NCBI GenBank assembly: GCA_949291365.1
Contig: CASEVJ010000010.1
Location: 1 to 64,000 of the forward strand
From: an uncultured bacterium
GTDB taxonomy: Bacteria; Elusimicrobiota; Elusimicrobia; Elusimicrobiales; Elusimicrobiaceae
Length of the DNA: 64,000 nucleotides
Direction of reading: 5' to 3'
The notes under the pieces are model-generated. The model searched no databases, had not been told where the DNA came from, and was given only the letters and a program-made list of their open reading frames with translations. Below are positions 2,813 to 57,170 of the stretch, piece after piece. Position numbers and translations under genes: made by a program. Position 1 is the first letter of the stretch. Every line of letters begins with the position of its first letter.

Positions 2813-4060
2813 TTACTGCAGGGGAGCGGTGTCTTTTTTTACCGGAGCGGGAGCGGGAAAAAGGCCGTCTTCTTCGTCGGTCAAATCCCGCCGTAGGGCA
2901 TAAAACCCCCACCCGGCCAACAGCGCCGCCGCGCCCACCGCCAGCCACGGCCCGGGCAAATACAGCGGGGCCACATATTCCCCCAGCCACCCCGCCGCAA
3001 AAAACCCCAGCGAGGAGCCCATATTATAAAACACCATCAGCATCCCCAAATACCGCCCGCGCGTCTGCGCGGAGGCCATATTGGAGACCAGGGTCTGCTC
3101 CCCAGGGGCTACAATCAGCTCCCCCAGCGCCGCCAACAGCACCCCAAATGCAATAGGGGCAAAACTGCCAAAAAACCCCACCGACCCATACCCCACCGCA
3201 TACAGCGCACACCCCAACAGCATGGCCGACGTAAGACGCATACGCATCATTAGCCGTGTGGCGTGATACTGCAAAAACACCACCGCCAAGCCGTTAATGG
3301 TAAAAAACCAACCGATATAATTTTCCGGCATATGCAAATAGGTATTGCAATGCACCGAAAGCCCCACCACCAGCTGGGAATTGACCGCCGTAATCAGCAG
3401 TACATAGGCGCATATTTTCGCCAGCCGTTTGTCCCGCAAAGACACCAGCAAAGACACAAACTGTGGCCGGCGGCGCACACTGCGCGCGGGGGCCGCATCA
3501 TCGGCAATGATACGGTTTATATACCACACCCCCAACACAAAAGCCAGCGCCGTCAAATAAAACGCATAACTGTACGACCACCGCACCAAAAATCCGCCCG
3601 CCGCCGGCCCCAGCGCCCAGCCCAAATTGACCCCCACCCGGATAATGCCAAACGCTTCCACCCGCTGTTTGGGGGTAGTGTTGTCCGTTATCCAAGCATT
3701 GGAAACGGGCCGGAAAGTGGCCCCCAAAAACGTGGTAAGAAAATAAAACAAAAGCACCCAGCCAATAGGCGCTTTATATTCTATGCAGGCCGCCATAACA
3801 CACATAACCGCCACCTCCAGCGCAAGCCCCCACAGCATAATGCATTTGCGGCCCAGCGCGTCGGACAGTTCCCCCGCCAGCGCACTGGCAAAACTGCGGC
3901 TGAAGGCAGACAGCGCAATCACCAGCCCCGCCATAGCAGCAGAAAGCCCTTGCCGGCTGATTAAATAGACGGTAAAAAACGGCAAAGAAAGACCGTAGCC
4001 AAACAATAACAACCCATTGGCTACGGCTAATGAAATCATCGCGCGGCGCGTGCGGTTCAT
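2813..4060 (-). CDS. MFS transporter
   Basis: A 415-residue major facilitator superfamily permease with about twelve hydrophobic segments. The loop between helices 2 and 3 carries the MFS signature region as GELSDALGRKCIM. Drug or metabolite efflux is the usual role for this general type, but the substrate cannot be assigned. I start at ATG 4060 (MNRTRR), where the first helix follows at once; the upstream extension to 4192 is Arg/Cys-rich and unlike a transporter. There is no ribosome-binding site; a TACAAT hexamer at 4067-4072 lies six bases before the ATG, suggesting a leaderless mRNA. Confidence 0.88.
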   Translation of the reverse strand: MNRTRRAMISLAVANGLLLFGYGLSLPFFTVYLISRQGLSAAMAGLVIALSAFSRSFASALAGELSDALGRKCIMLWGLALEVAVMCVMAACIEYKAPIGWVLLFYFLTTFLGATFRPVSNAWITDNTTPKQRVEAFGIIRVGVNLGWALGPAAGGFLVRWSYSYAFYLTALAFVLGVWYINRIIADDAAPARSVRRRPQFVSLLVSLRDKRLAKICAYVLLITAVNSQLVVGLSVHCNTYLHMPENYIGWFFTINGLAVVFLQYHATRLMMRMRLTSAMLLGCALYAVGYGSVGFFGSFAPIAFGVLLAALGELIVAPGEQTLVSNMASAQTRGRYLGMLMVFYNMGSSLGFFAAGWLGEYVAPLYLPGPWLAVGAAALLAGWGFYALRRDLTDEEDGLFPAPAPVKKDTAPLQ

Positions 4061-4379
4061 GTATATATTGTAGTAAATTCCCCCGCGTGCGCGCTTCCCG
4101 CCGCCGCAGAGGCACCGGCGCGCCGCTTTGGCTGCGCAGGGGATATATGGGGGAAGCGCTTGACCGGCTAGCCCTGTCTGGCATGTATGCAAACACAGAA
4201 ACTAAAAATGTTTGCCGGCACGCCGCTATCCAAAGAAATTACTCTGCGCTAACACCAAACACAACGCTTCTCAAGGGGCCATGTTTCCTTTTCTATATAC
4301 TGGCGCTTGGGGCCCCCAGCGCAGAGAAAAAAACTTGCCGGATTTACATCCGGAACTATAGTAAAAGGTATATATAAAA
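4061..4379. other. Gene-free gap upstream of the MFS gene
   Basis: No convincing gene. It contains the MFS promoter at its left end, a short TTTGCCGG element near 4210 resembling repeats in other gaps, and a small hairpin (TTGCCGGATTTACATCCGG) near 4335. Confidence 0.5.
4067..4072 (-). promoter_or_regulatory. -10 hexamer, leaderless start of MFS gene
   Basis: TACAAT on the minus strand, followed by ATATAC and then the ATG. With the usual 6-7 nt from -10 to start of transcription, the mRNA would begin at or beside the start codon. Confidence 0.55.
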
Positions 4380-4408
4380 AATCCTGCCGGCTTAACACCG
4401 GCAGGATT
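4376..4408 (-). terminator. Terminator of the Cys-rich protein gene
   Basis: AATCCTGCCGG (4380-4390) pairs with CCGGCAGGATT (4398-4408), followed on the minus strand by a T run. It lies just past the stop at 4427. Confidence 0.8.
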
Positions 4409-4426: not shown

Positions 4427-5512
4427 TTATCGGCAAGAATTCTGTGTTGTACCACAAGATTGCGTAGAAGGACACGTCCATTCATATTTTTCTCTTCGGC
4501 AAATCAGGACTCCAGCCAAACTATCGTAATAACCACTATAATTCGTCTGTACAGGGACAGCAAAAGAACAACGAAATTCTCCTTCAAATGTATCCCTATC
4601 AAACATATTATCGGCCATATCAGCACACGTTACAGCAGCTGCACTAGCGGCCTCATTCCTGTCGGAATAATTCGGGATAGAATATCCATCATGGTCACAC
4701 GCAGCTGCCCCAGATTCAGCAACAATATTAGATACAGAGCATGTACCTCCCTGATAATCAGGATAAGAATATTCATTTTCAGCATCATATAAGTGGCAGT
4801 TATATGCTTGTATATAAGATTGTTCCATCTCTCCATAAGCAGAGCAGGAGCGAACACACTGCGAGCCATTCCAAGAAACATTCTCTCCGGTGCAGCATTT
4901 TTGCTGATTAGGATTCTCTGTGCAGTCCTGCTCGGTAGATTCTTCCGTTCCGCAGGAGGCAAAGCCAAGTACTTTATAGGATTGGTTGTCGTCAGTTAGG
5001 CGGGTAACCCACTGCAAGCCCTGGCACTCGCTCGGAGCCGTGGGAATGGTATTGTTGCCCAGTACAAACCCGGAGATAGAGTTTCCATTGTAATCCGTAG
5101 TGGCTTCCCCAGATACTGACACTTGCCGCAAAGCCATTCTGTTGGCCTGCACACGCATAGAGGCCCCTATCATATTGCCAATTTGAGAGGTACCGCTGCC
5201 CACAAAAGAAGCGGGGCCGCTGCTATACAAGGTAGTCGTATTGAAATCCGTATTAGGCATATTCAGCGTGCCCTGCACTTCGGTTCTGTCCGCCTGATAA
5301 TTGCCGGCATTGTTGAAAGTGACCGTGCCGCCGGACTGCACCGTAACGGCCTGTGCAGAGATACCGCCTTTGCTGGTCAGGCCGCCGGAAATCTTCAGGT
5401 TTTCATAACGGCCCAAACGGGCGGGGTTGAACGAAACAGCGTCTATTGCTTCCGCTGCCGTCCACGTGGCGGCCAGAAAGACCGCCGCTACTAACAATAA
5501 GCATTTTTTCAT
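4427..5512 (-). CDS. Secreted Cys-rich protein of unknown function
   Basis: A 361-residue exported protein that I do not recognise. A signal peptide (MKKCLLLVAAVFLAATWTAA) is followed by about 150 residues rich in Gly, Ser, Thr and Asn in short beta-like repeats, then a C-terminal half with many cysteines, including CCTGENVSW, TCADMADNMF and closing CPSTQSC. The cysteines suggest disulfides, so an envelope or extracellular location. I start at ATG 5512, preceded by AAAGGGG, rather than 5557. The DNA of the C-terminal half is visibly more AT-rich than that of the N-terminal half, hinting at a domain of different origin. A surface adhesin-like role is only a guess. Confidence 0.75.
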   Translation of the reverse strand: MKKCLLLVAAVFLAATWTAAEAIDAVSFNPARLGRYENLKISGGLTSKGGISAQAVTVQSGGTVTFNNAGNYQADRTEVQGTLNMPNTDFNTTTLYSSGPASFVGSGTSQIGNMIGASMRVQANRMALRQVSVSGEATTDYNGNSISGFVLGNNTIPTAPSECQGLQWVTRLTDDNQSYKVLGFASCGTEESTEQDCTENPNQQKCCTGENVSWNGSQCVRSCSAYGEMEQSYIQAYNCHLYDAENEYSYPDYQGGTCSVSNIVAESGAAACDHDGYSIPNYSDRNEAASAAAVTCADMADNMFDRDTFEGEFRCSFAVPVQTNYSGYYDSLAGVLICRREKYEWTCPSTQSCGTTQNSCR

Positions 5513-5617
5513 AAAAGCCCCTTTACTGCTTGTATTTACACAAAAAAAATGTATCAAAAAAATAAATACGGGTCAAGACATTTTTGGCAAAAGCCCGTTT
5601 ATTTATTTTGTATATTA

Positions 5618-5623
5618 TATAGT
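5618..5623 (+). promoter_or_regulatory. -10 hexamer, leaderless start of DUF1189 gene
   Basis: TATAGT followed by ATAAAT and the ATG at 5630, with no ribosome-binding site between. Confidence 0.5.
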
Positions 5624-5629
5624 ATAAAT

Positions 5630-6373
5630 ATGATTCTCTTATTTTTCCAGTCCATTTTTTCATTTCGTTCATATCACCGCTTCAGCACGCTGGGGCCGTG
5701 GAAAACGGCCTTCTTTGTATTCTATATATGGCTGCTGGGGCTGCTGTGCTTTAATATCTGGTTTACGCTGCAGCTGCAGCAGCAGCTGCCCGCATTTTTA
5801 AAAACCGTCCCGGAGCTTTCCTTTGAAAAAGGCACGCTGACCGGGCCGGAGCAGGCCGTCACACTGGCTATCCCGCAGACGGGCATGTCCGTCGTGTTTG
5901 ACGCACACGCCCAGCGCACGCCCACCCGGGAAGATTTTATAAACCGCCAACTGCTGGCTTTTGTAACGCAAAACCGCATCTATACCGTTTCTTCTTTCGG
6001 GGTGCAATCCCAACAACTGCCGGCCAACTTTACCCTGCACATCACCCAAAGCTGGCTGCAGCAGAACATGGCTTCTATCCGCGGCGCATTACAAGGGGCG
6101 GGCTTTTTCGGCTCGGCACTAGCCATGGGTTTATTTCTGCTGTTCTCCTTTTTCCTGGCCGCCAGCTCCGTCTATTTATGGAGCGCGTGGAAACGCACCC
6201 TGCTGCCCCCGGGCACCGTGCTGCGCTGGGCGGCGTTTTTACAGGGGCCGGCGCTGGCGCTGTGGCTGGTAAACCTGCTGTGGGGCGTGCCGCTGTTTTT
6301 ATTTGGGTTGTTCATTTTGTATATGATTTACATACAGCAAATTTTTAATCTTATGCCCGAGAAAAAGAGGTAA
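5630..6373 (+). CDS. DUF1189-like membrane protein
   Basis: A 247-residue protein with one N-terminal transmembrane segment, a soluble middle of about 110 residues, and three or four C-terminal hydrophobic segments. The opening (FFQSIFSFRSYH) and this topology match my memory of the DUF1189 family, whose role is unknown. I choose ATG 5630 because the hydrophobic start follows directly and a -10-like hexamer lies six bases upstream; the upstream frame to 5549 covers the promoter. It is the first plus-strand gene and ends two bases before queD, so it likely shares that operon. Confidence 0.65.
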   Translation: MILLFFQSIFSFRSYHRFSTLGPWKTAFFVFYIWLLGLLCFNIWFTLQLQQQLPAFLKTVPELSFEKGTLTGPEQAVTLAIPQTGMSVVFDAHAQRTPTREDFINRQLLAFVTQNRIYTVSSFGVQSQQLPANFTLHITQSWLQQNMASIRGALQGAGFFGSALAMGLFLLFSFFLAASSVYLWSAWKRTLLPPGTVLRWAAFLQGPALALWLVNLLWGVPLFLFGLFILYMIYIQQIFNLMPEKKR

Positions 6374-6375
6374 CT

Positions 6376-6723
6376 ATGCTTTTAAAAATTATCCGCAAAT
6401 TCAGCTCCGCCCACCGCCTGCCGCACTATGACGGCCCCTGCCACCATTTGCACGGGCACACCTGGAAAGTGGTCTTTTTGATAGAAGGCCCCGTCCGGGC
6501 CGACGGCATGGTGGCGGATTTTAAACAATTAAAACCGCTGCTGGATGCCCAGCTGCCAGACCATTGCTATTTAAATGACTTGCTGGAAAATCCCACGGCG
6601 GAAAACCTGGCTCCGTATTTGTTTGACAAAGCCGCCGCCGCGCTAAAACCGCTGGGGCTGACGCTTAAAACGCTGGAACTGTGGGAAAACGAGAATGCCG
6701 CCGCCGTGTGGGAAGGCCAATAA
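6376..6723 (+). CDS. queD: 6-carboxy-tetrahydropterin synthase
   Basis: A 115-residue QueD/PTPS-family enzyme that converts dihydroneopterin triphosphate to 6-carboxytetrahydropterin for 7-deazaguanine (queuosine) synthesis. Zinc-binding histidines are H13, H26 and H28, and the catalytic cysteine C22 sits in the C-x3-H-G-H pattern typical of QueD. A conserved Glu lies near the C-terminus (LELWENE). GAGGT precedes the ATG. It opens the block queD-queE-folE, which draws on one GTP-derived pterin pool. A second, Cys-less family member lies at 8811. Confidence 0.93.
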   Translation: MLLKIIRKFSSAHRLPHYDGPCHHLHGHTWKVVFLIEGPVRADGMVADFKQLKPLLDAQLPDHCYLNDLLENPTAENLAPYLFDKAAAALKPLGLTLKTLELWENENAAAVWEGQ

Positions 6724-6750
6724 CCCGCCGCCGCGCCAAAACGCTATTTT

Positions 6751-7341
6751 ATGAACAACACGCTAAAGGTAAATGAAATTTTTTATTCCCTGCAGGGAGA
6801 AGGCCCGCATACCGGCATGGCGGCGGTATTTTTGCGCCTGGCCGGCTGCAGCATGAACTGCCCTTTCTGCGACACCCGCTACGCCTTTGCCCAAGGACAG
6901 GACATGACCTATGCAGAAATTATCAACAAGCTGGAGCAATACCCCTGCCGCAACGTCATTATCACCGGCGGGGAACCCACCGAGCAAGACTTTGCCCCGC
7001 TGGCGCGCCTGCTTAAACAGCGCGGATGGACGGTGCACATGGAAAGCAACGGGGCTCAAAACGCCGATGTATCTGATATAGATTTTTTGGTCATCTCCCC
7101 CAAAAAGCATGTCTGCCCAGACATGCTTGCCAAAGCCCACGCTATTAAAATTGTAGTCGGGCAGGATACCGATTTGGAAGAATTAAAAACGTATTTCCCG
7201 TATGCAAACGGCCGCACTGCCGTCTGCCTGCAGCCACAAAGCAACAAACAGGAGAACATAGATTTATGCGTAAAACTAATAAAACAAAATCCGTTTCTAA
7301 AGTTAAGTCTGCAAATGCACAAACTGGCACACATAAAATAA
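6751..7341 (+). CDS. queE: 7-carboxy-7-deazaguanine synthase
   Basis: A 196-residue radical SAM enzyme that ring-contracts 6-carboxytetrahydropterin to 7-carboxy-7-deazaguanine. The iron-sulfur cluster motif is C33-x3-C37-x2-C40, preceded by the family hallmark SLQGEG (13-18) and followed by an ITGGEP segment. The product would next need QueC, then QueF and Tgt to reach queuosine; none is in this window. There is no clear ribosome-binding site 27 nt after queD. Its 3' end overlaps folE by 76 nt in another frame. Confidence 0.93.
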   Translation: MNNTLKVNEIFYSLQGEGPHTGMAAVFLRLAGCSMNCPFCDTRYAFAQGQDMTYAEIINKLEQYPCRNVIITGGEPTEQDFAPLARLLKQRGWTVHMESNGAQNADVSDIDFLVISPKKHVCPDMLAKAHAIKIVVGQDTDLEELKTYFPYANGRTAVCLQPQSNKQENIDLCVKLIKQNPFLKLSLQMHKLAHIK

Positions 7342-7886
7342 CCCAGGAAAAAGTATTGCAAAACCTGCGGGAAATTTTAACCTATATTGGTGACGACCCC
7401 TCCCGCGAAGGCCTGCAGGAAACTCCCAAGCGCATTTTGCGCAGCTGGGACAAACTGTTCGGCGGATACAAAATGCGCCCGCAGGACGTGCTAAAAACAT
7501 TTACCGAAGGGTCTTGCGACGAAATGGTGGTGCTCAAAGACATTGAATTTTATTCCACCTGCGAACATCATTTGCAGCCGTTTTTCGGCTCTATCAGTAT
7601 TGGCTATCTGCCCAAAGGACGGGTGCTGGGCATTTCCAAGCTGGCGCGTTTGGTAGAAGTATTTGCCCGCCGCCTGCAGATACAGGAAAAACTGGTGGCC
7701 CAAATTGCCGACAGTTTAATGGAAACCCTAAAGCCGCACGGCGTAATGGTGGTGTGCAAAGCCAAACACATGTGCATCAGTTCGCGCGGCATTGAAAAGC
7801 ACAACGCCGTCATGGTCACCAGCGCCATACGCGGCGCATTTAAAAAAATGGAAGTGCGCAACGAATTTTTAGAGATGATAAAATAA
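7266..7886 (+). CDS. folE: GTP cyclohydrolase I
   Basis: A 206-residue type I GTP cyclohydrolase making 7,8-dihydroneopterin triphosphate, the branch-point compound for both queuosine (via QueD) and folate. Zinc ligands are seen in STCEHHLQPFFG and in a later MCISSRG segment, and SREGLQETPKRI is the N-terminal family block. A basic, low-complexity stretch of about 25 residues precedes the core. The ATG at 7266 lies 13 nt after AGGAG and within the end of queE, a 76-nt overlap. A TTG near the core is an alternative but would leave a short N-terminus. Confidence 0.93.
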   Translation: MRKTNKTKSVSKVKSANAQTGTHKITQEKVLQNLREILTYIGDDPSREGLQETPKRILRSWDKLFGGYKMRPQDVLKTFTEGSCDEMVVLKDIEFYSTCEHHLQPFFGSISIGYLPKGRVLGISKLARLVEVFARRLQIQEKLVAQIADSLMETLKPHGVMVVCKAKHMCISSRGIEKHNAVMVTSAIRGAFKKMEVRNEFLEMIK

Positions 7887-8019
7887 CCCACAGCCGGCAC
7901 CTGCACAGAAATATTAGGCCGCCGCTGCACGCACATTGCCCCGGCACACTGCCGCCGCGGCCCGGAAAGCGGGCCGCTAGCCACGGGCCCGGCGCCGCCC
8001 CAAACAGCGCCCATACATT
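7887..8019. other. GC-rich spacer between folE and folP
   Basis: 133 nt, very rich in G and C, with a local inverted repeat (GCCCGGAAAGCGGGC). No gene, clear terminator or ribosome-binding site is visible. Confidence 0.4.
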
Positions 8020-8814
8020 ATGCAAAAACAAATCATGGGCATCATTAATGCAACGCCCGACTCTTTTTATGACGGCGACCCACAGCATAACCTGGGCACA
8101 CTGCTGGACAAATGCGCCCGGCATATAGCTGACGGCGCAGACATATTAGATATCGGCGGGGAATCCACCCGCCCCGGCGCCACGCCGGTCAGCGCTGAAG
8201 AAGAATTGTCCCGCACGCTGGAGCTGATTAAACAAGCGCGCGTCCGCTGGCCGAAAATACTGATTTCCCAAGACACCTTTAAACTCCCGGTGGCTCTGGA
8301 AGGGCTAAAAGCCGGCGTCAAGATAATTAATGACGTCAGCGGTACGCCGGATACGGAAATGTTTAAACTGGTTAAAGACTTTGGCGCGCAGCTGGTCATC
8401 ATGCACAGCCGCGGCAACCCGCAAACCATGCAGAACATGACACAGTATGATGATTTATTGCAGGAAATCAAAGAGTTCCTTTCTGCTAAAATTGACCAAG
8501 CCCAACAATATGGCCTGACAAAAGAGCAAATCATCATAGACCCCGGCTTTGGCTTTGCCAAAACGCGGGAGCAAAATTATAAACTCTTGGCACACGCGGG
8601 CTTTTTTACTAATATGGGGGTACGGCTTTTGATTGGGCTTTCCCATAAAAAATTTTTAAGCCAGCCCGGCGAAAAGCCCCCCAAACGCAAAACACAAACC
8701 CTGTGCGCCAACTTTGCCTCACTGCAGGCCGGAGCAGACATTTTGCGCGTACACGACGTGAAAGAAACCAAGAAAGTCGTCAATTTCTTTTTGGAACTGG
8801 AGGCCAACTCATGA
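8020..8814 (+). CDS. folP: Dihydropteroate synthase
   Basis: A 264-residue TIM-barrel enzyme that joins p-aminobenzoate to hydroxymethyl-dihydropterin diphosphate. Family signatures are clear: GIINATPDSF at the start, DIGGESTRPGA for pterin binding, an INDVSG strand and IDPGFGFAKT. The ATG at 8020 has no strong ribosome-binding site but places the first signature correctly. Its TGA overlaps the ATG of the next gene (ATGA), so it is coupled to the PTPS-III-like gene. Confidence 0.95.
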   Translation: MQKQIMGIINATPDSFYDGDPQHNLGTLLDKCARHIADGADILDIGGESTRPGATPVSAEEELSRTLELIKQARVRWPKILISQDTFKLPVALEGLKAGVKIINDVSGTPDTEMFKLVKDFGAQLVIMHSRGNPQTMQNMTQYDDLLQEIKEFLSAKIDQAQQYGLTKEQIIIDPGFGFAKTREQNYKLLAHAGFFTNMGVRLLIGLSHKKFLSQPGEKPPKRKTQTLCANFASLQAGADILRVHDVKETKKVVNFFLELEANS

Positions 8815-9161
8815 GTAAAGTATATTTAACCCAAGCAGGGTCTTTTACTGCCATGCACAGCCACGACGGCACCCTGGCGGAACCCTTACACAAACATCTC
8901 TTCCACTATGAAGCTACTTTCTACGGAGACATCAACGAAGAACGCTTCCTGGTGGATTTCCGCCAAATCAGCCAAATGTTCAAAAATGAACTGGAAAAAA
9001 TGTTGGACGGCTCGGACTTAACAACCTTTCTGCCCTTTCCCACGGCGGAATCGCTGGCAATTTGGCTCTACGACCGCATTAAGGTCAAAATGCCCAAACT
9101 CTACAGCGTCAAAGTGGCTGAATCCGAAGACCGCTGGGTAGAATACCGGGGAGAAGAATAA
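8811..9161 (+). CDS. PTPS-III-type pterin lyase, likely FolB substitute
   Basis: A 116-residue 6-pyruvoyltetrahydropterin synthase family protein. Unlike the QueD at 6376 it has no catalytic cysteine; the metal site reads E24-P-L-H27-K-H29 with H16 or H18 upstream. Glu followed by H-x-H is the hallmark of PTPS-III, a group shown in Plasmodium and several bacteria to make 6-hydroxymethyl-dihydropterin, bypassing dihydroneopterin aldolase (FolB). Its place between folP and folK, with ATGA and TAATG overlaps on both sides and no folB in the cluster, supports that role. The start at 8811 is set by the folP overlap; the frame extends further upstream only inside folP. Confidence 0.82.
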   Translation: MSKVYLTQAGSFTAMHSHDGTLAEPLHKHLFHYEATFYGDINEERFLVDFRQISQMFKNELEKMLDGSDLTTFLPFPTAESLAIWLYDRIKVKMPKLYSVKVAESEDRWVEYRGEE

Positions 9162-9652
9162 TGCCCCTGGCCATTTTGGGGCTGGGCAGCAACCAAGGCA
9201 ATCCCAAGCAAAATTTAGACCTGGCCATAGAAGCCCTGGGCACGCTGGGCCAGGTCAAAGAAACAGCCCCCTATATCCTCTCTAAACCGGAAGGATACGA
9301 AGCACAGCCGGATTTTGTCAATACGGTGGTATTGCTCTCCACGCCGTATCAGCCGGCGGATTTGCTGCGCAAACTTAAAGAACTGGAAAGCAAGCTGGGC
9401 CGCGTGCCCACATTTAAAAACGGCCCGCGTGTAATTGACCTGGATATCTTGTTTTACGACGACCAAATTGTCTTTGATGATGAAGTAATGCTCTTTGTGC
9501 CGCACCCGCGGCTGCATGAGCGCGAATTTGTATTAAAACCGCTAAGCTATTTGCTGCCAGATTATGTACACCCTAAACTGGGCAAAACCATTACGGCCTT
9601 ATACCGCGAACTCATGCGCAAGAAAGGTGTTCCAAGCTGCAAAATTTTGTAA
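9161..9652 (+). CDS. folK: Hydroxymethyl-dihydropterin pyrophosphokinase
   Basis: A 163-residue enzyme that activates 6-hydroxymethyl-7,8-dihydropterin with ATP for FolP. The start LGLGSNQGNP and the block RVIDLDILFYDD with the following PHPRLHER are the family signatures. The ATG overlaps the preceding stop codon (TAATG). It closes the pterin cluster; the next gene has its own ribosome-binding site after a 37-nt gap. Confidence 0.95.
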   Translation: MPLAILGLGSNQGNPKQNLDLAIEALGTLGQVKETAPYILSKPEGYEAQPDFVNTVVLLSTPYQPADLLRKLKELESKLGRVPTFKNGPRVIDLDILFYDDQIVFDDEVMLFVPHPRLHEREFVLKPLSYLLPDYVHPKLGKTITALYRELMRKKGVPSCKIL

Positions 9653-39409: not shown

Positions 39410-39440
39410 GCGCACGCACGCCTGAATCTTTGACAAAACA

Positions 39441-39482
39441 AAAAATCTCTTATACGCCTGCAGGCGGGAAGAGATTTTTTGT
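39441..39482 (+). terminator. Terminator after argS with palindromic loop
   Basis: AAAAATCTCTT (39441-39451) pairs with AAGAGATTTTT (39469-39479). The loop contains the self-complementary CGCCTGCAGGCG. It lies only 25 nt before the macroglobulin start codon, so it may limit read-through into that gene. Confidence 0.75.
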
Positions 39483-39507
39483 CTTACAGGGAAATGAGGG
39501 AGGAAGC

Positions 39508-42500
39508 ATGAAAAAAATTATTTTACTGGCTCTTTGTCTGCTGCCGACGGCCGTCTGGGCGCAAAACCGTCAAGCGGCAGACGCCGCCTACGAAAACGGC
39601 GACTTTGCCCAAGCACAGCAATATTATCAGCAGGAACTTAAAACCGCTAAAGGAGAAAATCTCTATGAGGCGCAGTTGCGTCTGATTGCCAGCCAATATA
39701 TGCAGGGTAAATATCAGACTGCCGCAGAAAGCGCTTTTACGTTTGAACTGCCCAAAAATCCGCTGTGGAAAGCACGCTTTCTGCTTTACCGCGCACAGAC
39801 GGCCCAGCGCGTGAGCGAAATTTATTCCCCCATTTTACCCGATGCCCAGGAAGAGGATGCATCTTTCCCCCAATTAAGCAAAAGCCAGTGGAATGAAAAA
39901 ATAGACCAATGCTACGAACAACTTTGGGATTTACGCACGTTTTTGGTGAATGCCCCCATAGAAAAAGAAACCCTGATTCTCAATTTGCAGGATACGGACA
40001 CGAAAGCCATTCCCACGCTGTTTGACTTTACGGTACTGCGCTGGAAAGAACGTCTGTTGGCTTCGCCGGTCGCTGTTCCGCTGCGCGCCGCAGACGTGCT
40101 GACCGCAGACTACAAAAGCCCCTCCCAGGCCAAAAATGATGCCCAAAAAGCTGTCTCTCTTTTAGCAGACGCCGCCGATTTAGGGGGCAAAGGGCGCACC
40201 AATGCCCGCATTATCTGGCAGGCACAGCGCCTGACATTGCCGTTTGAATACCCCCATTTATTTAGTTTTGAAGACAAAGGAAAACAAACCGTCCAGGCCG
40301 CCCAGCTGCTGCAGGAGCTGGCCGGCTACTCCCAGGAAAAGAAAAGTTTTTTGGCTAAAATCAGCCAGGCCCTGCTCTCCAGCGGCGCGCCGTACGGCAA
40401 AGCATACGCGGCGCTGCAGGCGGCTTATTTGTTAAACCAAGCGGAAGAATATGACCAAGCCGTCTGCGTGTGTGACTATGCCGCCGAAGAAATCAACGGC
40501 GGGTATTACAGCCAGGCCTGTGCGGAATTTGCCCAAGGCATACGGGAGCCGTCGCTGCAGGTACAGCCGCTGGCCTCCAGCCAAAACCTGGCGGAAGGGA
40601 AAATTGCTTTTACCGCACGCAACATAGACCAGGTATATGCCCGTATTTATTCCGCCAGCGAGGCGGACTTGCGCAAATGGTACAAAGCCGAACATACGGG
40701 CACAATCAATTCCTGGCGCTATTTAATGACGGTGCCGGCCTCTCAAATCCCGCAGATTTTACAGCGCACCCCCGTCGGAGAAGCGCATTCTCCCGTCAGT
40801 TATCCCAAACCGCACGCTTTCCAAAAAGGGGAACTCCAGCTGCCCGCTTTGAATAAACGCGGTTTTTATGTGGCGCTGCTCTCGCACGAGCCCAACTTTG
40901 ACACCGCCAAATCCCCTGTGCAGGCTCTCGTGCTCAATAATACGGAGCTGGCTCTGTTTGCTTCTTCAGCCATAGAAGGCAACCCTGCCGACTATCGTAC
41001 CCGGGCCAACAAAACATTTACCCCCAATGTATTCCGCATCTACGCGCTGAACCTGAAAACCGGCGAACCGGTGCCCGGGGCAGACATTACCTATTATACC
41101 GACTGGAAAGGCCAGACGGAAAACGGCCAAACCAATGAAAACGGCTTGCTGACGCTGCAACGTAAAATACAAATAAACGCTAACAAATCCAACAACTATT
41201 TCATTTTGCCCAAGGCCGTTAAAGATGACAGCACGGCGTTTATGCCCTCTGCCATTTACTTTAACTATTATCCCTCTTCTCCTTTCTCGCTCTATGCAGA
41301 AACCGACCGCGCCATTTACCGTCCCGGCCAGAAAGTGCAGCTGGCGGTATATGGATTTGAAAAAACAGGCCGCGGCCTGCAAACCATGGAGCAGGGCGCA
41401 CCGCTGCAGCTTATTGTGCGCGACGCCAATTACGACAAAGTGCATGAGGCCAACTTAACCCTTAACACATACGGCACCGCACAGGATACGTTCACCTTGC
41501 CCGATACCGGCCTGCTGGGGTATTACACGGCGGAAATGACCTACAAATCTTCCGGCAAAAACATCCGCACCTATGCCAATTTCCGCGTAGACGAATATAA
41601 ACGTCCGGAATACCAAATCACGTTGTCAGACGCCGCCCAGCTCCAATATGACAAAGAAGCCACCTTGCAGGGCAGCGCCCACTACTATTTTGGCGCTCCG
41701 CTGGAAAAGGCCGCCGTAACCTATACCGTGCACCGCACCTATTTCCGTCCGCCGTTCTGGTGGTGGCGCAGCGGCAGTTTCCCGGTGGGAAATGAATTTA
41801 TAGCAGAAGGGAAAACCACTACTGACAAAAACGGAAACTTTGAAATTAAATTCACCCCCCTCCCCGGGCAGGATAACGGTTTCCCCAGTGTATTTACCGT
41901 ACACGCCTCGGTGATGGACGCTTCGGGCCGCGTCATAGAAACCCAACACGCCTATAAAGCCAGCCGCAATGGGGCCTTCTTCCAGGTGTCCTTTGATAAA
42001 GGGTTTTATGATGCCCAAACCCCCAGCCCGCTGGCCCAAATCAAGCTGACCGATGTTAACGGACAAAGCACTGGGGGCAAATTCACGGCTGAAATTTACG
42101 AGCTGGAAAACAAACTGGCTCCGGCAGACAATCTCTCCGCCGACATGCCGGCTTTCGGCAAAACGGATTTGGAAACGCTGTACGCCCAAAACAAAGAGCT
42201 GCGCCGGGTGTCCAAACAGTCGTTCTCCCTGAAAAAAGATGAAGACGCCGCCCTGCGCATAGACGCCCTGCCGGAAGGCATTTATAAATTAAAACTGCAA
42301 GGCAAAAATGCAGACAATGTGGAACTGGTGTTTCTGGTGGCGGACAAACAATCCCATTTGCAGCTGCCCGCCGTAGCTATTGCCCAGCAAAACAGCTATT
42401 ACCCGGGCACGCAAGCCAAAGTGCTTATCGGCGCCCAGGCCTTAACGGGCGCAAAACGCATTGAAGTATACAATGACGGCAATTTCTTGGCTACCCGCGA

Positions 42501-45447
42501 GCTGATAGGCCCCGGAGCGGGCATCTATGCGCTGCCTATTCAAAATGAATGGCGCGGCGGCGTATATCTGCGCTGGTTTGGTGCCGGAGATTACCGCTTT
42601 TATACTGCGCAGACGTTCATTGACGTCCCGTTTGACAACAAAGAACTTTCGTTAACTGCGGCTATCCCCGCCGAGGTCAAACCCGGGCAAAAAGTGTCAT
42701 GGGAACTCTCGGCCAAAAATGCTTCCGGCGCGCCGGTGCAGGGGCAGGCCTCCGTGCGTATTTATGATAAATCGCTGGACTATTACGCGTCCTCTGCCCA
42801 AAGCGTCTTATCTTTAGACAAGCTCTATCCGTCCCCGGCTTTTGGGGCGCAATTGACAGACAGCGGGTTTAGCGTCTACTCCACCGCCTTATACCAACCG
42901 CCAGAAAAACCTCAAACGCGCGATCTCTCTGCTCCTATATTGCCGCAGCTGAATCTGCAGCCGCGTTTCTTTGCCTATAATGCCATGGCCCGCGGCGGCG
43001 GCCCCGCCATGCAAAAAGCCCTGTCGGCAGCCGCCCCGATGGCAAACAGCATGATAGCGCGCGACGCTGTGGCGGAAGAAGAATCCGCCGTAACCATGGC
43101 CACAGCAGGAGCCAGTGCTGACAGCGCTTCTGCGGCGGAAAGCGGAGCGTCCGCTTCCGAAGCGGCGGCCCCGCGCACCGACTTTTCCGAAACGGCTTAT
43201 TTCAACCCCATGCTGCCGCTGCAAAGCGGAAAAGGCAAGCTCTCTTTTACGCTGCCGCAAAGCTTGACCGAGTGGAACATCGTGGCTTTCGCCCTCACAA
43301 AAAATGCTGATTTCGGCTCCTACACCGCCCAAACAGTCACTCGAAAAGAGTTGATGGTGCGTCTGGCACTGCCACGCTTTTGGCGTGAAGGAGACAGCAG
43401 TACTTTGGTGGCCCAGGTGACCAATCTGACAGATAAAAAACGTTCCACCGAGGTCACGTTGGATATTTTGCTTAACAACCAAGACGCCGCGGCACAGCTG
43501 GGTATTGAAAAACGCACGCAAAGCGTCACTGTCCCGGCAGGCGGCACAGCGGAGGTATCCTGGCCAGTGACCTTGCCGAAAGGCGTAGGCATTTTTAGCA
43601 TAACGGCCACCGTGCGCTCCGGCCAAGAGGCAGACGCGGAAAACCGCCAAATCCCCCTCCTGCCCGCACAAGAACGCTTATCCGAAAGCACCACCGTGGC
43701 GCTGGAAAGCGGACGCGAAACGCTAAAGCTGGAGAACCTGCTTACACCGGACGCCAGCCGGCAGGTTTCCTCCGTTACGCTGCGCGTGGATCCGGGGTTA
43801 CTGCTTTCTGTATTTGAAGCCATGCCGCAATTGTTAAAACCGTATCACAATGACGCGTTGAGCATAGCCGACCGCTATGTACCGCTGGCCGTGGTCAACG
43901 GTTTTTACAAAACCTATCCCATGCTGCAAAACGCTGTGGAAGAATTGCCCAAACGTTCCACCCAAAAACCCGCGTGGGACAACCAAGACCCTTCCCGGCT
44001 GATGCTGGCAGAAGAAACCCCCTGGCTGCAAGAAGCCCGGGGCGGCGCAGAGCGGGAGGCGTTCCTGACGGATTTGTTCAATCCTTCCGCGGTGGCTAAA
44101 GCCCGCGCAACGGCTGAAAAAGAGCTGGCGAAATACCAAACCGCCGCGGGCGGATATACTTGGATGCCCGGCGGCCAGCCCAGTGAATACATTACCCTGC
44201 GCCTGCTGGCGGCATACGCAGAGGCCTTGCGCTACGGCGGGCAAATTCCGCAACAGGCGGCGCAAAAAGCGTTAAGCTGGCTGGGCCCGCGCATTGAAAA
44301 AAATCTGCAGGAAGCCGACGCTTCCGCCGCCACCGTATCGCAGGCATTATACGCCGCATATGTGTTTACCGCGTTCCCGCAGGACTGGAAAGAAATTAAA
44401 CAAACGCCCGTTCAAAACTGGCTGGATTATGCAGACCGCCATTCCCGCTACATGACGCCGCTGGGGCAAACGTATGCGGCGGCGGCCTATTCCCGCTTGG
44501 GCAAAGGCACCAAAGCGCAAAATTATTTGGACGTCGTACTGTCCCAGATGAAAACCGATCCTGTTACCGGCTCTTACTTTGCACCGGAGGCGCAAAGCTG
44601 GCTGTGGTACAACGACACGCTGGCCACCCAAACCGCTACGCTGCGCACCTTGTTGGAAATACGCCCGGAATCAGACAAAGCGGAAGGTTTGGTAAAATGG
44701 CTGCTCTTTAACCGCCAGGCCCAAGTGTGGGACAGCTCCGCCGCCACGGCAGATGCCGTATATGCGCTGCTGGACTACATGAAACGCAATGGCCTTTTGG
44801 ACGACCCTGCCGAATATACGCTCAACTGGGGCGACACCAAAAAGACCTTCCATTTTGAGCCCTTTGACTGGAGCGAACAGCTGGCATGGACAGAGCAGGC
44901 CCAAAATGTGGACAGCCGCTATTACAGCGCCACCGTTACCAAGCGCGGCGGCCTGACCGGGTTTGTTACGCTTGACGCGGTATACACCACCGCCAATGCC
45001 CAGCCCTCTGCCAAAGGAGTGCTGAATATCCAGCGCGACTACCTGCTGAAATATACCGAAGGCGGCCAGGAAAAAGTGCGTCCGCTGCAGCCCGCAGAAG
45101 CAGTGCCTGTAGGCAGTGAAGTGGAAGTACTCTTGACGCTGGAGGCCTCGTCCGCGTTTGACTTTGTCGTGCTGTCCGACCCCAAACCCGCCGGCTTTGA
45201 AAGTACTGACCTGTTAAGCGGCTGGAGCCGCGACGTCTTAAGCGTATACCGTGAAAACCGCGACGCCGCCACCAACTTCTTTTTAGACCGCGTGCCTGCC
45301 GGCACCTATACACTGCGCTATAGTTTGCGCCCCACCTTGAGCGGGGACTATCATGCCCTGCCCGCGCAGGTGCAGTCCATGTATGCGCCGCAATTTTCAG
45401 CGCATACGGGCTCTGCCCAGCTGAAGGTTTCCCCGTTGCAAGACTAA
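39508..45447 (+). CDS. Giant alpha-2-macroglobulin-like protein lacking the thioester
   Basis: A 1979-residue exported protein. After a signal peptide without a lipobox, residues about 20-110 look like TPR repeats. The MG2 block (TDRAIYRPGQKV) is near residue 600, a low-complexity Ala/Ser/Glu stretch near 1190-1225 may be the bait region, and the A2M domain (LPQSLTEWNIVAFAL) is near 1260. Where protease-trapping members have the thioester CxEQ, near residue 1440, this protein reads KPYHNDALSIADRY, so it cannot form the covalent trap. The alpha-helical toroid domain follows. A periplasmic or surface protease-inhibiting role is a family-based inference. GGGAGGAAG precedes ATG 39508. No pbpC is next to it. 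Confidence 0.88.
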   Translation: MKKIILLALCLLPTAVWAQNRQAADAAYENGDFAQAQQYYQQELKTAKGENLYEAQLRLIASQYMQGKYQTAAESAFTFELPKNPLWKARFLLYRAQTAQRVSEIYSPILPDAQEEDASFPQLSKSQWNEKIDQCYEQLWDLRTFLVNAPIEKETLILNLQDTDTKAIPTLFDFTVLRWKERLLASPVAVPLRAADVLTADYKSPSQAKNDAQKAVSLLADAADLGGKGRTNARIIWQAQRLTLPFEYPHLFSFEDKGKQTVQAAQLLQELAGYSQEKKSFLAKISQALLSSGAPYGKAYAALQAAYLLNQAEEYDQAVCVCDYAAEEINGGYYSQACAEFAQGIREPSLQVQPLASSQNLAEGKIAFTARNIDQVYARIYSASEADLRKWYKAEHTGTINSWRYLMTVPASQIPQILQRTPVGEAHSPVSYPKPHAFQKGELQLPALNKRGFYVALLSHEPNFDTAKSPVQALVLNNTELALFASSAIEGNPADYRTRANKTFTPNVFRIYALNLKTGEPVPGADITYYTDWKGQTENGQTNENGLLTLQRKIQINANKSNNYFILPKAVKDDSTAFMPSAIYFNYYPSSPFSLYAETDRAIYRPGQKVQLAVYGFEKTGRGLQTMEQGAPLQLIVRDANYDKVHEANLTLNTYGTAQDTFTLPDTGLLGYYTAEMTYKSSGKNIRTYANFRVDEYKRPEYQITLSDAAQLQYDKEATLQGSAHYYFGAPLEKAAVTYTVHRTYFRPPFWWWRSGSFPVGNEFIAEGKTTTDKNGNFEIKFTPLPGQDNGFPSVFTVHASVMDASGRVIETQHAYKASRNGAFFQVSFDKGFYDAQTPSPLAQIKLTDVNGQSTGGKFTAEIYELENKLAPADNLSADMPAFGKTDLETLYAQNKELRRVSKQSFSLKKDEDAALRIDALPEGIYKLKLQGKNADNVELVFLVADKQSHLQLPAVAIAQQNSYYPGTQAKVLIGAQALTGAKRIEVYNDGNFLATRELIGPGAGIYALPIQNEWRGGVYLRWFGAGDYRFYTAQTFIDVPFDNKELSLTAAIPAEVKPGQKVSWELSAKNASGAPVQGQASVRIYDKSLDYYASSAQSVLSLDKLYPSPAFGAQLTDSGFSVYSTALYQPPEKPQTRDLSAPILPQLNLQPRFFAYNAMARGGGPAMQKALSAAAPMANSMIARDAVAEEESAVTMATAGASADSASAAESGASASEAAAPRTDFSETAYFNPMLPLQSGKGKLSFTLPQSLTEWNIVAFALTKNADFGSYTAQTVTRKELMVRLALPRFWREGDSSTLVAQVTNLTDKKRSTEVTLDILLNNQDAAAQLGIEKRTQSVTVPAGGTAEVSWPVTLPKGVGIFSITATVRSGQEADAENRQIPLLPAQERLSESTTVALESGRETLKLENLLTPDASRQVSSVTLRVDPGLLLSVFEAMPQLLKPYHNDALSIADRYVPLAVVNGFYKTYPMLQNAVEELPKRSTQKPAWDNQDPSRLMLAEETPWLQEARGGAEREAFLTDLFNPSAVAKARATAEKELAKYQTAAGGYTWMPGGQPSEYITLRLLAAYAEALRYGGQIPQQAAQKALSWLGPRIEKNLQEADASAATVSQALYAAYVFTAFPQDWKEIKQTPVQNWLDYADRHSRYMTPLGQTYAAAAYSRLGKGTKAQNYLDVVLSQMKTDPVTGSYFAPEAQSWLWYNDTLATQTATLRTLLEIRPESDKAEGLVKWLLFNRQAQVWDSSAATADAVYALLDYMKRNGLLDDPAEYTLNWGDTKKTFHFEPFDWSEQLAWTEQAQNVDSRYYSATVTKRGGLTGFVTLDAVYTTANAQPSAKGVLNIQRDYLLKYTEGGQEKVRPLQPAEAVPVGSEVEVLLTLEASSAFDFVVLSDPKPAGFESTDLLSGWSRDVLSVYRENRDAATNFFLDRVPAGTYTLRYSLRPTLSGDYHALPAQVQSMYAPQFSAHTGSAQLKVSPLQD

Positions 45448-56435: not shown

Positions 56436-57110
56436 TTACTGCATATTGGACAAGACAGATTTCACATTATCGGGAAGTTGTGTATTTTTCAGAACGTCCT
56501 CTGTAGAAACCTGGCTGCTCATGGCCTTGCTGACCTGGGTAGAGCGGGCATCGGCTTCTTTCTGGGAAGCGTTGGGATCTGTTATGCCCAGCCCGGCGGC
56601 CTCTGCAGCGGCGGTGGCGGTAATATTTTTCGCCGCCGTAGCGGAAAGGTCTTTGGCTTGTTTATAAGAAGGGGTATAGCTTCCGGAAGAAGCGGAACTG
56701 CTGGCGGTAGCCGTCTTGGCTGCTGTGGCCGGCTTACTGGAAGAAGCCGAAAAAGACGGCACATAAGAAAGCCCTTTCTCCCCCGGTCGTTTCACCGTAA
56801 CCGACGTGGTGGGGCGCGTAACAGTTGCAGTCGTAGTCGGACGTGTGACCGCCACGGAAGTGGTGGGACGGGTAACAACAGCAGTTGTAGTCGGGTGCGT
56901 CACGGTAGCAGTCGTGGTTGGACGAGTCGCGACGGCAGTAGTAGCCGGACGCGTCACAGTGGCGGTCGTGGTCGGATGGGTGACCGGGGCCGCCGTGGTA
57001 GGATAGACCACCGGAGCCGACGTGGTCGGACGCGTGACCGGGGCCGTAGTAACCGGGGCCGCGGCGGCAGGCACGCTCCCCATCAAAACGAATAATAAAA
57101 GGTATTTCAT
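56436..57110 (-). CDS. Secreted Thr/Pro-rich repeat protein (mucin-like)
   Basis: A 224-residue protein with a signal peptide (MKYLLLFVLMGSVPAAAA). Residues about 23-108 are nine to ten copies of a 9-residue unit of the form A-x-V-T-R-P-T-T-T. After a short Lys/Gly piece come Ser/Ala-rich and helical segments (QKEADARSTQVSKAMSSQVS). Thr-Pro repeats make an extended, possibly glycosylated stalk, so a surface or periplasm-spanning role is plausible. No anchor (lipobox, LPxTG or C-terminal helix) is visible. AGGAG precedes ATG 57110, preferred to 57125. Own terminator. Confidence 0.75.
   Translation of the reverse strand: MKYLLLFVLMGSVPAAAAPVTTAPVTRPTTSAPVVYPTTAAPVTHPTTTATVTRPATTAVATRPTTTATVTHPTTTAVVTRPTTSVAVTRPTTTATVTRPTTSVTVKRPGEKGLSYVPSFSASSSKPATAAKTATASSSASSGSYTPSYKQAKDLSATAAKNITATAAAEAAGLGITDPNASQKEADARSTQVSKAMSSQVSTEDVLKNTQLPDNVKSVLSNMQ
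56787..57044 (-). repeat. 27-nt coding repeats in the mucin-like gene
   Basis: Nine to ten direct repeats of 27 nt that encode the 9-residue Thr/Pro unit. Units differ at synonymous and some non-synonymous sites, so the array is not a recent perfect expansion. Confidence 0.85.
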
Positions 57111-57170
57111 ATATTCTCCTGTCATTTATAGTATACGGTGCAAAAAAATCTTGTCAAGCAGGGCTGGGAA

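What the first reader, a model, noticed from the sequence alone, without database searches (positions are those of the whole stretch)
4427..5512. Mosaic secreted Cys-rich protein
An exported protein of no family I recognise. Its N-terminal half is Gly/Ser/Thr/Asn-rich and GC-rich in DNA, while the C-terminal half carries most of the cysteines and is more AT-rich. Such a join suggests that a conserved export-stalk part was fused to a variable tip. Related genes with the same head and different tails may exist elsewhere in the genome.
Basis: partly seen in the sequence, partly recalled or inferred. Interest (0 to 1): 0.52.

Follow-up and report, generated by a model that had tools for sequence, protein, structure and literature searches.

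The report
Exported protein with exchangeable cysteine-rich tail
In this gut-bacterium lineage, exported proteins keep nearly the same front part while their cysteine-rich tails are replaced wholesale by recombination, which looks like a way to change what the cell surface recognises.

Summary
The gene (minus strand, 5512-4427, 361 aa) has a conserved head (about residues 1-188), a small Cys-rich hinge (197-223) and a Cys-rich tail (224-361). GC3 is 0.61 before codon 190 and 0.31 after; the best change point is codon 223. Head and tail travel separately: the head profile hits 73 of 90 family genomes, this tail 7 of 90, five of them on a different head ('MVTYFPVPYA'). Of 16 pairs with head DNA identity above 0.70, 13 have tails at 0.21-0.53 identity and 3 keep them. 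In two species, heads at the same locus are 65-83% identical, yet a 1.2 kb block covering the head's end, the tail and the 3' flank is 95-100% identical. Some other tails are shared with type IV pilins. A single-contig genome has five near-identical heads with different tails, so this is not just an assembly artefact. Best explanation: a recognition module whose tail is swapped by homologous recombination. Modularity and exchange are shown; surface location, disulfides and binding are inferred. No family library searched explains head or tail.

The parts
4427..5512 (-). CDS, 361 aa, exported head-hinge-tail protein
   Evidence: Open frame with signal peptide; head relatives in 73 of 90 family genomes
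5453..5512 (-). signal peptide, residues 1-20 (cleavage after A20 inferred from conserved A20-E21)
   Evidence: Translation; A20 and E21 invariant in 16 heads
4949..5452 (-). conserved mature head, residues 21-188
   Evidence: Alignment A1; natural head-only proteins stop 1-13 residues after the last conserved Cys region
4844..4924 (-). hinge, residues 197-223, C-x-x-NPNQ-x-KCC...WNG-x-x-C plus CVRSC
   Evidence: Alignment A2 of 17 copies; in 20 of 90 genomes; on both head types and on pilins
4430..4843 (-). variable Cys-rich tail, residues 224-361, low GC3
   Evidence: GC3 change point at codon 223; relatives in 7 of 90 genomes, five on the other head
4380..4408 (-). terminator-like stem-loop after the stop codon
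   Evidence: 12 pairs then T-rich tail; consensus match only
2813..4192 (-). downstream flank gene (transporter-like by eye, label recalled), part of the conserved locus
   Evidence: tblastn of window flank proteins: found beside the head gene in 7 of 17 named loci
5549..9652 (+). upstream flank genes (QueD/QueE/FolE/FolP/FolK-like, labels recalled), part of the conserved locus
   Evidence: tblastn: found beside the head gene in 6 of 17 named loci

Best explanation
The gene encodes a Sec-exported protein made of two interchangeable modules: a lineage-conserved head that places the protein, and a Cys-rich tail that recognises something outside the cell (probably adhesion to glycans or to other cells). 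The tail is replaced as a unit by homologous recombination; the 3' end of the head and the conserved DNA downstream act as arms, and donors are sibling copies or related species. Tail families are shared among three carriers: this head, the 'MVTYFPVPYA' head and type IV pilins. SHOWN: the module boundary, different tails on near-identical heads, the same tail family on different carriers, and a tract that fits a recent transfer between two species. INFERRED: surface display, disulfides, ligand binding, and DNA uptake as the route.
For: Head in 73 of 90 genomes, this tail in 7 of 90, five of the seven on the second head. Of 16 pairs with head DNA identity above 0.70, 13 have tails at 0.21-0.53, including all ten same-genome pairs. 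L005 and L044, one genome: 97.1% over 552 nt of head, tails unrelated. L052/L053: 95-100% block over the tail between less similar head and flanks. 22 cross-carrier tail links among 73 tails after masking the hinge; 91 such pairs unmasked against 0 in five Cys-fixed shuffles. Same pattern in a single-contig genome and in tandem pilins. Same chromosomal locus in 8 of 17 named loci. Head-only proteins exist. ComEC-family match in the genome.
Against: Three of the 16 pairs keep related tails, so tails are also inherited vertically. The window gene's own tail has only distant relatives (24-38% identity), so no recent swap is seen for this gene itself. Its own genome has no second copy of this head and no spare copy of this tail. 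No experiment or reliable fold supports a surface or binding role. Only 3 of the 22 masked links involve pilins, and one of those is 45 residues long.
Confidence: 0.6

Rival explanations
1. Polymorphic toxin (CDI/Rhs-like): a conserved export part with swappable toxic C-terminal domains, each with a small immunity gene behind it.
For: Same gene design: conserved N-terminal part, replaceable C-terminal part, tandem copies.
Against: Open frames in tandem arrays are only 113-271 nt apart (from coordinates), which leaves little room for an immunity gene; tails are Cys-rich, no tail matches a Pfam, NCBIfam or PHROGs domain above cut-off in the few proteins scanned. No systematic immunity-gene search and no PADLOC scan was run.
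Confidence: 0.12
2. The tails do not bind a target but are decoys or variable coats: they vary to escape phages or host immunity, or are secreted inhibitors, without surface recognition.
For: Extreme tail diversity on a constant head; no anchor motif was identified.
Against: The same tail families occur on type IV pilin-like ORFs, which argues for display with a job at a filament; this is indirect.
Confidence: 0.2
3. Assembly artefact: chimeric contigs join repeated heads to unrelated 3' sequence.
For: Many records are metagenome assemblies and contigs often end inside the repeated head.
Against: Same pattern in a single-contig 1.64 Mb genome and in tandem pairs inside long contigs; Cys positions are conserved within the tail family.
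Confidence: 0.03

Closest known systems
PilV shufflon of IncI plasmids (R64, TP114; PMC9045228, passages read)
   Same: Constant N-terminal part, exchangeable C-terminal ends that act as adhesins; type IV pilus link.
   Different: PilV ends are exchanged by a tyrosine recombinase at short sites among promoterless cassettes. Here the copies are full genes, breakpoints fall in long homologous DNA, the window head is not a pilin, and tails are shared by three carriers. A recombinase was not searched for.
CDI/Rhs polymorphic toxins (recalled, no call)
   Same: Conserved export part and displaceable C-terminal tails.
   Different: No toxin domain recognised and little room for immunity genes in tandem arrays.
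Campylobacter fetus S-layer and Neisseria pilE/pilS variation (recalled, no call)
   Same: Homologous recombination in a conserved part gives new displayed ends.
   Different: Unrelated proteins; here copies have their own start and signal sequence, and the same tails occur on different carriers.

Membership tests
Type IV pilin / pseudopilin | N-terminal methylation motif (PF07963) in the same protein | tested here: not met
   No match in the window protein; two pilin-like ORFs with Cys-rich tails, L105 and L043, do match above cut-off
PilV shufflon | constant N-terminal part with different C-terminal ends | tested here: met
PilV shufflon | promoterless inverted cassettes and a site-specific recombinase beside them | not tested
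   No recombinase or invertible-site search was run; the copies seen are full genes
Diversity-generating retroelement target | reverse transcriptase in the genome | tested here: not met
   PF00078: 0 matches in the window genome, control genomes ring; genome is 93% complete
Polymorphic toxin (CDI/Rhs) | immunity gene directly behind each tail | tested here: inconclusive
   Gaps of 113-271 nt between open frames in tandem arrays; no direct search
Surface adhesin | outer-surface display and ligand binding | not testable with these tools
   No reliable fold; needs experiment

The most novel reading that the evidence does not exclude
Elusimicrobiaceae run a shared pool of disulfide-rich recognition tails that moves among three different carriers (two head families and type IV pilins), within genomes and between species, by homologous recombination after DNA uptake: a combinatorial surface-recognition system without a dedicated recombinase.
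Probability: 0.45. Interest if true: 0.8.

Novelty: new variant of a known kind. Interest (0 to 1): 0.62.

Why it matters
It gives a little-studied gut lineage a concrete candidate system for changing its surface, with sharp, testable boundaries, and it links pilins and non-pilin exported proteins through shared tails. If the tails bind host or microbial glycans, they are a natural library of recognition modules. Because contigs tend to end inside the repeated heads, the tail repertoire is probably under-counted in metagenome assemblies. Five literature searches listed no paper that appears to describe it; I read passages of two of the listed papers, and the 2009 Elusimicrobium minutum genome paper (recalled) is not held, so earlier notice there cannot be excluded.

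Tried and rejected
Diversity-generating retroelement: no reverse transcriptase match in the window genome. Phage origin: no match in 50,697 phage records at E 0.01, no PHROGs hit for the window protein and its paralogue. Spare tail copies in the window genome: none found. Chance similarity from Cys richness: rejected by five shuffles with Cys positions fixed and by masking the hinge. Structure: two AlphaFold2 jobs gave mean pLDDT 44.7 and 50.9, so no fold search was run. PDB sequence searches: none for the protein and the tail profile, one chance-level hit for the head profile (4ato_A, E 0.12). Pfam gave DUF7619 at E 0.086, below its cut-off. The single-protein genome-contig scan found nothing; the head alignment found 17 loci.

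Rows dropped before counts. One search removed identical ORFs and ORFs contained in others (131 to 128: 45 head-1, 38 head-2, 45 pilin). One search kept only proteins with a tail of at least 60 aa and pairs with head identity above 0.70 over more than 150 aligned bases; the number of pairs examined was not printed. Its tail identities are forced global alignments without an unrelated-pair baseline, so values such as 0.44, 0.47 and 0.53 may hide some homology; the L025 pair is again 70-87% identical near its 3' end. One search compared 35 of 45 head-1, 30 of 38 head-2 and 42 of 45 pilin ORFs, those with long enough pieces; related sequences are not independent, so its p values are optimistic. 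One search counts leave out pairs with the four unclassified fragment ORFs. One search printed a cut list, from which I used only lines I saw. The ten head-only ORFs were chosen by me; other short heads run off contig ends. Fourteen comparison genes were chosen by me.

Full report
What is there. The gene runs on the minus strand from 5512 to 4427 and encodes 361 aa with a signal peptide. A terminator-like hairpin follows the stop. It has 17 cysteines, fourteen of them from residue 197 on; GC3 is 0.61 in codons 1-190 and 0.31 in 191-361, with a change point at codon 223 that none of 1000 permutations matched. Fourteen other window genes have GC3 0.53-0.68, and the window shows the largest head-tail drop among 35 head-1 ORFs. 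Lower GC3 after the head is general: 28 of 35 head-1, 25 of 30 head-2 and 32 of 42 pilin ORFs. The genome is a 1.39 Mb assembly in 12 contigs, 93% complete. Named relatives are Candidatus Avelusimicrobium and other Elusimicrobiales, Elusimicrobiaceae or unnamed gut assemblies.

Head. Sixteen heads align with invariant M1, A20, E21, N29, P30, R32, G34, L39, G99, L151, G152, C163, V181 and L182. The head profile hits 73 of 90 genomes of the family and 73 of 340 of the phylum; one of the latter lies outside the family, a 40-position hit at E 5e-4. A second head type, 'MVTYFPVPYA' (alignment A3), has a profile that also finds the window gene at E 4.7e-10, so the two are probably related; it is in 80 of 90 genomes. 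Ten short ORFs were read past their stop: eight stop 1-13 residues after the last conserved Cys of the head, L051 (a distant member) stops one residue after a Cys, and L018 has a TGA followed in frame by Cys-rich sequence. The head can therefore exist without a tail.

Tail and hinge. Residues 224-361 have relatives in 7 of 90 genomes. Five (G006, G019, G038, G039, G043) are on the second head and two (the window and G021) on the first; the G006 frame lacks the start of its head. The hinge, C-x-x-NPNQ-x-KCC...WNG-x-x-C, is in 20 of 90 genomes, on both head types and on type IV pilin-like ORFs; a 1617-aa ORF cut by a contig end holds four matches to it.

Exchange. With the hinge masked and heads trimmed, 22 cross-carrier tail links remain at E <= 1e-4 among 73 tails: 19 head-1/head-2, two head-2/pilin and one head-1/pilin. 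The strongest are L022/L143 (2e-44), L009/L043 pilin (1e-27) and L150/L043 pilin (7e-27). Unmasked there are 91 such pairs at E <= 0.01, against none in five shuffles that keep Cys positions. At the DNA level 16 pairs share more than 0.70 identity in the head: 13 have tails at 0.21-0.53 and 3 keep related tails (0.68, 0.71, 0.99). All ten same-genome pairs (G006 six, G010 two, G014 one, G062 one) are among the 13. In the tandem pairs of L148, L025 and L140 identity falls from 93-100% to 27-70% within one or two 30-nt bins at the head end. L005 and L044, in one genome, have 97.1% identical heads over 552 nt and tails at 0.32.

Transfer between species. Eight of the 17 named loci share flank genes with the window: five on both sides, one upstream only (contig end), two downstream only; nine show no flank match. 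In L052 versus L053, records of two species in a one-genome-per-species collection, the upstream flank is 67-96% identical, the first 450 nt of the gene 65-83%, and the downstream flank beyond the block mostly 73-93%. From about nt 450 of the gene to about nt 1650, past its end at 1308, identity is 95-100%. That fits a recent recombination tract carrying the tail. Both are metagenome bins (E27 and BRZ_AF). A control against this being universal: window versus L055 and L053 versus L060 show no such block, and L056/L060 keep a related tail.

Not an assembly effect. A single-contig genome of 1,643,562 bases (G067; the length fits my recollection of Elusimicrobium minutum, not verified) has five genes with the second head, two tandem pairs and one alone. 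Between 60 and about 540 nt their heads are 80-100% identical, most 60-nt bins 92-100%; then identity drops to about 25-60%, with a few short bins up to 87%. G014 has three tandem second-head genes with 85-100% identical heads; one pair of them keeps similarity for about 200 nt more before diverging. Tandem pilins in G014 are 90-100% identical from nt 60 to about 780 and then diverge; two pilin genes at contig ends in the window's own genome have 88-100% identical 5' parts in unrelated surroundings.

Mechanism. Most likely the head positions the protein and the tail recognises something outside, with tails exchanged by homologous recombination that uses the head and the downstream flank as arms. 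The genome has a ComEC-family match, which fits DNA uptake but does not show it. Surface display, disulfides and ligands are not shown. Both structure predictions are too weak to use.

Comparison. It works like the PilV shufflon, where a constant N-terminal part carries exchangeable adhesin C-termini (PMC9045228, passages), but membership is not claimed: the window protein has no pilin motif and no recombinase was searched for. The retroelement reading fails a defining test. The polymorphic-toxin reading is only weakened, by short gaps in tandem arrays. No library searched describes head or tail. Literature searches on Elusimicrobium minutum with pilin, Avelusimicrobium, Elusimicrobi with type IV pil and with cysteine-rich, and a general one on conserved N-terminal and hypervariable C-terminal proteins listed no paper that appears to describe it.

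Noticed in passing
L041:417-5267 (minus): A 1617-aa open frame with 199 Cys, cut by a contig end, holding four hinge matches and many repeated Cys-rich segments.
   Followed up: partly
G000:C9:103045 and C1:62287 (L103, L104): Two pilin genes run into contig ends; their 5' parts are 88-100% identical inside unrelated surroundings, so their tails are missing from the assembly.
   Followed up: partly
window genome, 35 places: 35 matches to a pilin N-terminal profile at E <= 0.1 in a 1.39 Mb genome; one (C12:31907, L105) has a 473-aa frame with a long Cys-rich tail.
   Followed up: partly
L018:676-1905 (minus): Head followed by one in-frame TGA and then a Cys-rich continuation; both copies in that genome show a TGA.
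   Followed up: no
L204 / G046:C53:15485-17984: Two second-head genes face each other with related tails, an arrangement in which inversion between heads could swap tails.
   Followed up: no
window 56436-57125 (minus): 229-aa ORF with many Thr/Pro/Val-rich short repeats.
   Followed up: no
window 39430-45447 (plus): 2005-aa ORF that looks like a bacterial alpha-2-macroglobulin-type protein (label recalled, not searched).
   Followed up: no
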